A DNA stretch of 64,000 nt from Dictyophora rubrovolvata. Taxonomy: Eukaryota > Basidiomycota > Agaricomycetes > Phallales > Phallaceae. This document shows positions 46,909 to 47,795 of the stretch, in pieces (the first letter of the stretch is position 1; each line of letters starts with the position of its first letter). Under the pieces are notes generated by a model that had not been told where the DNA came from, ran no database searches, and saw nothing but the letters and a program-made list of their open reading frames with translations. A program made the position numbers and the translations under genes. The stretch covers positions 2,542,001 through 2,606,000 of the forward strand of contig CP114122.1 in NCBI GenBank assembly GCA_029959195.1, written 5' to 3'.

Positions 46909-47795
46909 CTAATTTGTGATATTTTTGATGTTGACGGGCGGTCGTAAAACTTCGATGAAGCCATTTTCGATATGGTACAACCAACTATGAATATAAATCT
47001 CTCGATTTTCACATTTGGCCTTCAAGATGACTTCCGTCTTACTGATATTCTCGACCTGAAGCGGAGAACAGTCAATCAGCAACGAAGCTGAGGGATAAAC
47101 TTCTTGACTCATTACCTGCATCTTGATGTTCTCATCAATAACTAATTCAACAGCCTCATCTTCAGGAAGGTCTGGATCTATTTCCATATCGATTACACGT
47201 TGGGTAAGGGGTGCCAGCCACCTGAAAACGATTATATGATGAATCACGGAGTGCAAGAACGGACAGCGGTAGTTACGCACTTTTCTAATGGAGTCCCAGT
47301 AGCTGGTGGACATGGACCAGTTCTGGCGGCCTTTAGAGCCGCCTCGGCACCACCACAACGACTACGGCCTGCGACGATGACTATTTGAAAATCAACATCC
47401 GTATTTGGGGTAATAGACCATTGGTAAACGTACTATGCCCGATACTAGGTAAATTCCCGACGCTGTATTCCAAAACAGCTGCGGCAGAATTATCATCAAC
47501 AGGGAATTGGTTGGCTGTATTGCGGTGCGTAAAGATTTCGCCAGGCAACGAAGCTGTGATGACGCTTTCCGGAACTCTAGAGTCAGAACAGCCTATCCAA
47601 AGGACCTGAGAAAAAAAAAGTGATGGGGTTAGCAGCAAATTCTTGCTTCCCGCTAATACTTACTTCTGGGTGTTGTCCTTCTGCACTGTCGTGGAAGAAA
47701 TTAGGATGAGAAGCATTCAACTCTATGGCCCAATCTTTATTGGAAGACAAAAGTTTGTTTATGATATCAGGGGAAGGAGGGTTACTCATTTCCAT
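46909..47795 (-). CDS. Beta-carbonic anhydrase with the zinc-ligand His replaced by Arg
   Basis: Beta-carbonic anhydrases interconvert CO2 and bicarbonate using a zinc held by Cys, His and Cys (the yeast homolog is Nce103). Five exons join in phase: 47795-47664, 47605-47434, 47380-47281, 47221-47116 and 47055-46909, giving 218 residues, a normal length. The first motif ILWIGCSDSRVPES-type reads VLWIGCSDSRVPESV, with ligand Cys and the Asp-Arg dyad intact. THRNTANQF and EYSVGNLPSIGHII follow. The second motif, usually VVGHxxCGG, reads VAGRSRCGG here: the His codon is CGT (Arg) at 47364-47366, one transition away from CAT. The second Cys is kept. The rest, WLAPLTQRVIDM and REIYIHSWLYHIENG, is well conserved. 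The change would be expected to weaken or abolish zinc binding unless it is a sequencing error or a polymorphism. Confidence 0.9.

What the first reader, a model, noticed from the sequence alone, without database searches (positions are those of the whole stretch)
47354..47386. Beta-carbonic anhydrase with Arg in place of the zinc-ligand His
The rest of the gene is well kept, with phase-correct introns and an intact CSDSR motif and second Cys, yet the motif normally reading VVGHxxCGG is VAGRSRCGG. The codon is CGT where CAT would give His, a single transition. Either the protein has lost catalysis (and perhaps gained another role), binds metal differently, or this is a polymorphism or base-call error.
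Basis: partly seen in the sequence, partly recalled or inferred. Interest (0 to 1): 0.7.

Follow-up and report, generated by a model that had tools for sequence, protein, structure and literature searches.

The report
Carbonic anhydrase copy lacking zinc histidine
A fungus carries two copies of the enzyme that interconverts carbon dioxide and bicarbonate, and one copy, otherwise intact, has arginine in place of an amino acid that normally holds the catalytic zinc, so it is probably a dead enzyme sitting beside a working one.

Summary
On the minus strand, 47795-46909, lies an intact five-exon beta-carbonic anhydrase gene ("CA6", 218 aa). Codon CGT at 47364-47366 puts Arg107 where beta-CAs have the zinc-ligand His. 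Both ligand cysteines (C50, C110), the Asp52-Arg54 dyad and Gln41, Phe69 and Tyr91 are kept. The column is His in 95 of 95 aligned comparators and in 32 of 32 further bacterial loci read by motif. The genome holds one other beta-CA found by search ("CA11", contig C11), with all three ligands (His codon CAT), the same four intron positions and phases, and 57.6% identity. Searches found no third beta-CA and no alpha-CA.

Best reading: a duplicated beta-CA whose second copy lost its zinc ligand and most likely its catalysis, while CA11 supplies the activity. Frame, splice sites and pairwise dN/dS (0.18, dS saturated) show long constraint. Whether CA6 still has a job, for example as a partner of CA11, or has begun to decay is open. 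Human CA-VIII has the same His-to-Arg change in the unrelated alpha class (PMC7215520), so this is a new variant of a known kind. Reads, strains and fungal relatives could not be checked.

The parts
47664..47795 (-). exon 1 of CA6 (start codon 47795-47793)
   Evidence: followed by donor GTAAGT
47434..47605 (-). exon 2 of CA6, with GCSDSR (Cys50 zinc ligand, Asp52-Arg54 dyad), Phe69, RNTAN and Tyr91
   Evidence: PF00484 match
47281..47380 (-). exon 3 of CA6, with VAGRSRCGG at 47349-47375
47364..47366 (-). codon CGT = Arg107 in the zinc-ligand His position
   Evidence: column is His in 95 of 95 comparators and in CA11
47355..47357 (-). codon TGT = Cys110, second cysteine ligand, kept
47116..47221 (-). 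exon 4 of CA6
   Evidence: intron 4 (60 nt) has no in-frame stop, so the plain ORF reads through it
46909..47055 (-). exon 5 of CA6 with IHSWLY (family HGWxY; Gly to Ser at 194) and the stop codon
47865..47872 (-). TATA-like box TATAAAAA, 70-77 nt upstream of the start codon; function not tested
47914..48555 (.). dispersed repeat with inverted ends (38-nt arms, 79%); inner end 119 nt upstream of the CA6 start codon

Best explanation
CA6 is one of two beta-class carbonic anhydrases left by a gene duplication in this fungus. Its zinc-ligand histidine has become arginine. Shown: the substitution, the rest of the catalytic site in place, an intact gene structure, and a canonical paralog (CA11) elsewhere in the genome. 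Inferred: without the His, zinc is not held or only weakly, the guanidinium occupies the metal pocket beside Asp52 and the two cysteines, and CO2 hydration is lost; CA11 supplies the cell's activity. The folded CA6 protein persists as a pseudoenzyme. The role I think most economical is a non-catalytic or regulatory partner in a mixed dimer with CA11, because beta-CA active sites lie at a dimer interface (recalled; a figure legend in PMC8122340, names residues from both protomers) and CA6 keeps the residues around the site. That last step is a proposal, not a result.
For: Arg against His in 95 of 95 comparators and 32 of 32 further loci. Two Cys ligands, Asp-Arg dyad, Gln41, Phe69 and Tyr91 kept. 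Intact paralog with the same intron positions and phases, 57.6% identity over a 198-column BLASTP alignment. Only two beta-CAs and no alpha-CA found. Pairwise dN/dS 0.18 over 213 codons (dS 1.87, saturated). No stop, four GT..AG introns: unconstrained drift beyond about 0.14 substitutions per site (0.08 with 16 splice bases counted) would be expected to leave damage with 95% probability. CA6 has 5 unique departures in 31 core columns against 1 of 32 for CA11. Human CA-VIII: same His-to-Arg change, no activity, fold kept (PMC7215520 and PMC13253706, passages).
Against: No expression, protein or activity data. The excess of core departures is small: Can2, an active enzyme, has 4 of 35, and in the looser count of 46 columns CA6 departs at 11, Can2 at 10, 7coi at 8, CA11 at 7. 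Relative-rate results are mixed: CA6 has more private changes than CA11 against 83 of 95 outgroups (not independent), but Can2 gives 22 to 13 (p 0.18) and 7coi 12 to 16 the other way; 7coi and 4o1k score better with CA6 than with CA11. The constraint evidence covers the time since duplication, not the time since the His was lost, so present function is not shown. Nothing here shows that CA6 and CA11 meet.
Confidence: 0.55

Rival explanations
1. CA6 is a redundant duplicate in early decay: the ligand was lost recently with no replacement function, and more damage will follow.
For: CA11 could cover the activity. CA6 also changed Ala92 (Ala in 89 of 90 bacterial rows) and Gly194 (Gly in 88 of 90). 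The tree places all CA6-CA11 length on CA6 (1.77 against 0.00, with a long-branch warning). A dispersed repeat ends 119 nt upstream of the start codon. The gene lies about 121 kb from the end of contig C6 (contig length).
Against: Open frame, intact splice sites, TATA-like box; long constraint.
Confidence: 0.27
2. A private or segregating allele of this strain, or a base error: the species' CA6 is an ordinary active beta-CA.
For: A single transition separates CGT from the paralog's CAT; the rest of the site is canonical; reads and strains were not available.
Against: Contigs are near chromosome scale (28.2 Mb in 11), though the sequencing method is unknown; isolated A-to-G errors in a non-repetitive exon are uncommon in finished assemblies (general knowledge); CA6 departs from the core at four further columns, which an error at one codon does not explain.
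Confidence: 0.13
3. CA6 still binds metal with other ligands (Cys50, Cys110, Asp52 and water) and keeps some CA or other hydrolase activity.
For: Both cysteines and Asp52 kept; [quoted passage not shown]
Against: No comparator lacks the His; Arg is a poor zinc ligand and its charge opposes Zn2+ (general knowledge).
Confidence: 0.05

Closest known systems
Beta-class carbonic anhydrases of the E. coli Can / plant type (PF00484), e.g. 1i6o (E. coli yadF), 2w3n (Cryptococcus Can2, name recalled), 1ddz
   Same: Pro_CA at 117.5 bits; two Cys ligands, Asp-Arg dyad, RNxAN, Gln/Phe/Tyr site residues; near full-length alignment.
   Different: Zinc-ligand His is Arg.
Human carbonic anhydrase VIII (carbonic anhydrase-related protein, alpha class)
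   Same: A zinc-ligand His replaced by Arg, fold kept, catalysis lost (PMC7215520, PMC13253706, passages).
   Different: Unrelated class; CA-VIII has a known partner (the IP3 receptor), CA6 has none known.
C-terminal domain of carboxysomal CsoSCA (beta class)
   Same: A duplicated beta-CA domain that lacks zinc-binding residues beside an active one (PMC10614612, passage).
   Different: A domain of one bacterial chain without the zinc-binding residues; here a separate gene with one ligand changed.
CA11, the paralog on contig C11 (locus L001, exons between 1288 and 2216)
   Same: 57.6% identity, 219 aa, four introns at the same positions and phases.
   Different: Has GHTNCGG; all three ligands present.

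Membership tests
Beta-class carbonic anhydrase (sequence family PF00484) | Pfam Pro_CA match above the curated cut-off | tested here: met
   117.5 bits against 25.7
Beta-class carbonic anhydrase (active enzyme) | Zinc ligands Cys-His-Cys | tested here: not met
   C50 and C110 present, His replaced by Arg107
Beta-class carbonic anhydrase (active enzyme) | Asp-Arg dyad | tested here: met
   D52, R54
Beta-class carbonic anhydrase (active enzyme) | CO2 hydration and bound zinc | not testable with these tools
   needs recombinant protein
Carbonic anhydrase-related proteins (CARP VIII, X, XI) | alpha-class fold (PF00194) | tested here: not met
   protein matches only PF00484; no PF00194 match in the genome
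Pseudoenzyme | homologue of an enzyme, key catalytic or metal residue lost, gene maintained, no activity | tested here: inconclusive
   residue lost and gene intact; maintenance since the loss and absence of activity not shown
Pseudogene | stops, frameshifts or broken splice sites | tested here: not met

The most novel reading that the evidence does not exclude
A beta-class counterpart of the acatalytic CA-VIII: a stand-alone fungal pseudo-carbonic anhydrase in which Arg107 stands in for the zinc charge and the protein pairs with the active CA11 to tune CO2/bicarbonate supply or sensing.
Probability: 0.18. Interest if true: 0.65.

Novelty: new variant of a known kind. Interest (0 to 1): 0.4.

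Why it matters
If the Arg is fixed and the protein is made, the beta class would have a natural stand-alone ligand-loss protein parallel to alpha-class CA-VIII, with its active sister in the same cell, and a role for mixed dimers in fungal CO2 handling could be tested directly. If it is a decaying duplicate, it is ordinary. Six paper searches on the question showed me no stand-alone beta-CA with this change, but each listed only the top 1 to 20 hits of an open-licence library, and I read passages only.

Tried and rejected
None of the 120 matches CA11 by tblastn at E 1e-3 (80 checked, all 120), so they are chance matches and the scan says nothing about how often the change occurs. I replaced it with a direct look at homologues. 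A trial of a similar pattern on the window found nothing, as expected for a gene with introns.

A viral-contig search with CA6 gave no relative. I met no fungal relatives other than solved chains. The species could not be named: the ITS was read, the adjoining 28S is masked. That it is a basidiomycete is my impression from recall.

Considered and rejected: a frame or splice error hiding a His; H101 as the ligand (it aligns elsewhere); RIP-type mutation (C to T; this change is A to G on the coding strand). The branch lengths of the tree (CA6 1.77, CA11 0.00, Can2 4.16) are not trusted as rates because pairwise counts are milder. In one search a first regular expression gave 'S' for L249 (a match on the wrong strand) and missed 15 loci; searches corrected this.

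Structure prediction was not used: the tool takes proteins read letter for letter from the DNA, and this one is spliced.

Full report
What is there. The window is part of contig C6 of a 28.2 Mb genome in 11 contigs. On the minus strand between 47795 and 46909 there is a five-exon gene. Joining the exons at GT..AG introns of 58, 53, 59 and 60 nt gives a 218-residue protein, here called CA6. Intron 4 has no in-frame stop, so a plain ORF list reads through it. The protein matches Pfam Pro_CA (PF00484) with 117.5 bits against a cut-off of 25.7 and matches 35 distinct solved chains at E up to 1e-5, most over nearly its whole length.

The substitution. The first motif reads GCSDSR (C50, D52, R54). 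The second reads IIVAGRSRCGG, with Arg107 where the family has His and Cys110 in place. The codon is CGT at 47364-47366. I aligned CA6 with 90 beta-CA genes from one bacterial phylum (matches in 228 of 299 genomes) and five rows from four solved chains (1ddz twice, 2w3n, 1i6o, 7coi): the column is His in 95 of 95. The 90 are the 30 best matches, the next 40 listed and 20 from the end of the printed list; they are not a random draw, and weaker matches were not printed. A further 32 loci, 30 of them from a second phylum (matches in 63 of 119 genomes) and two, were read by motif: 32 of 32 have His (the last three). Three more solved chains printed (4o1j, 4o1k, 7cxy) also read GHxxCGG.

What is kept. 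Gln41, Cys50, Asp52, Arg54, Phe69, Arg72, Asn73, Asn76, Tyr91, Cys110, Gly111 and Gly112 match CA11, Can2 and E. coli Can; that Gln, Phe and Tyr line the site is recalled. CA6 departs at 5 of 31 core columns (columns shared by the other solved or paralogous rows and by at least 90% of bacterial rows): Ala92 to Ser, Val99 to Ile, His to Arg107, Val167 to Ile, Gly194 to Ser. CA11 departs at 1 of 32, 7coi at 1 of 32, each half of 1ddz at 1 of 32, E. coli Can at 0 of 31, Can2 at 4 of 35. In a looser count of 46 columns, CA6 departs at 11, Can2 at 10, 7coi at 8 and CA11 at 7. So CA6 is more altered than its sister but, apart from residue 107, not clearly more than an active fungal enzyme.

The second copy. 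Genome searches find one other beta-CA, on contig C11. Its 219-residue product has GCADSR and GHTNCGG, with His codon CAT, and shares 57.6% identity over a 198-column BLASTP alignment, or 119 of 213 aligned residues overall. Its four introns fall at the same places and phases (0, 1, 2, 0) as those of CA6 (exon lengths). No alpha-CA was found. The searches read exons one by one, so a very divergent copy could be missed; gamma-CAs were not searched for.

Constraint. Between CA6 and CA11, dN is 0.33 and dS 1.87 (saturated), ratio 0.18 over 213 codons. CA6 has no stop and no broken splice site. About 21 stops are expected per substitution per site, so an unconstrained stretch longer than about 0.14 substitutions per site would leave a stop with 95% probability, or 0.08 if 16 splice bases are added (a simple count, transitions weighted twofold). 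This shows constraint over most of the time since duplication. It does not date the loss of the His and does not show that CA6 is under constraint now.

Rates. The evidence that CA6 evolves faster is mixed. An IQ-TREE tree puts all the length between the copies on CA6 (1.77 against 0.00), but it has very long branches (Can2 4.16), the tool warns about them, and the pairing of CA6 with CA11 has support 89/20. Counting private changes, CA6 has more than CA11 against 83 of 95 outgroups. With Can2 it is 22 to 13 (p 0.18), with the halves of 1ddz 17 to 12 (p 0.46) and 21 to 7 (p 0.013), with E. coli Can 15 to 8 (p 0.21), and with 7coi 12 to 16 the other way. The phmmer scores favour CA11 for 1ddz, 2w3n and 1i6o but CA6 for 7coi and 4o1k.

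Mechanism. In beta-CAs zinc is held by two Cys and one His, and an Asp and an Arg are conserved (PMC2664464, passages). Loss of the His most likely removes zinc and with it CO2 hydration. The closest tested parallel is human CA-VIII, of the alpha class: it has Arg in place of a zinc-ligand His, lacks activity, keeps its fold and acts on the IP3 receptor (PMC7215520 and PMC13253706, abstracts and passages). Within the beta class, the C-terminal domain of CsoSCA appears to be an ancient duplication of the catalytic domain without zinc-binding residues (PMC10614612, passage). A pseudoenzyme lacking a zinc motif that pairs with an active zinc enzyme is known: KIAA0157 with BRCC36 (PMC5106787, figure legend). 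From this I take a folded, catalytically dead partner of CA11 as the leading reading, with early decay as the main rival. One fungal beta-CA, CafB, forms a disulfide between its two zinc cysteines when inactive (PMC8122340, passage); CA6 could do the same, which is speculation.

Surroundings. A dispersed repeat with inverted ends (47914-48555; arms 38 nt, 79%) stops 119 nt before the start codon. The genome search gave 50 matching rows, its own included, mostly partial and on all 11 contigs; the tool calls such counts lower bounds. A TATA-like box (47865-47872) and a run of 14 G (47829-47842) lie between it and the start codon. The gene is about 121 kb from the end of contig C6. Whether the repeat affects expression is unknown.

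Novelty and verdict. The sequence feature is real. It is a new variant of a known kind, a ligand-loss paralog of an enzyme. Six paper searches on the question showed no stand-alone beta-CA of this sort. I saw passages of ten papers and none in full; PMC4207490 proved irrelevant (its 'pseudoenzyme' is a reference title) and the passages of PMC3907363 say that all 75 metazoan and protozoan beta-CAs examined there keep the Cys, Asp, Arg and His. The names Can2 for 2w3n, Sordaria CAS for 4o1j and 4o1k, and Aspergillus Caf for 7coi and 7cxy are recalled; the searches call them only carbonic anhydrase.

What the check changed. On re-reading the calls I corrected the end of CA11, the number of the nearby histidine (101), the place of the TATA-like box, the number of papers and the count of scanned loci, and resolved three loci.

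Noticed in passing
47914-48555: Dispersed repeat with inverted ends (TAGTGATGGG...CCCATCACTA) rich in AACCGGTTC units, just upstream of CA6; 50 matching rows, mostly partial, on all 11 contigs.
   Followed up: partly
27580-28467 (-), 38848-39741 (+), 45673-46347 (-), 62390-62953 (-): Four ORFs with DUF6699, of 8 ORFs scanned, in one 64 kb window: a local family of unknown function; one lies downstream of CA6 on the same strand.
   Followed up: partly
47829-47842: Run of 14 G in the 5' leader of CA6.
   Followed up: no
G000:C8:1797427-1797581, C8:1807952-1808106, C2:2622909-2623063: Three 5.8S rRNA matches on two contigs, the C2 copy scoring slightly lower (151.5 against 157.7 bits).
   Followed up: no
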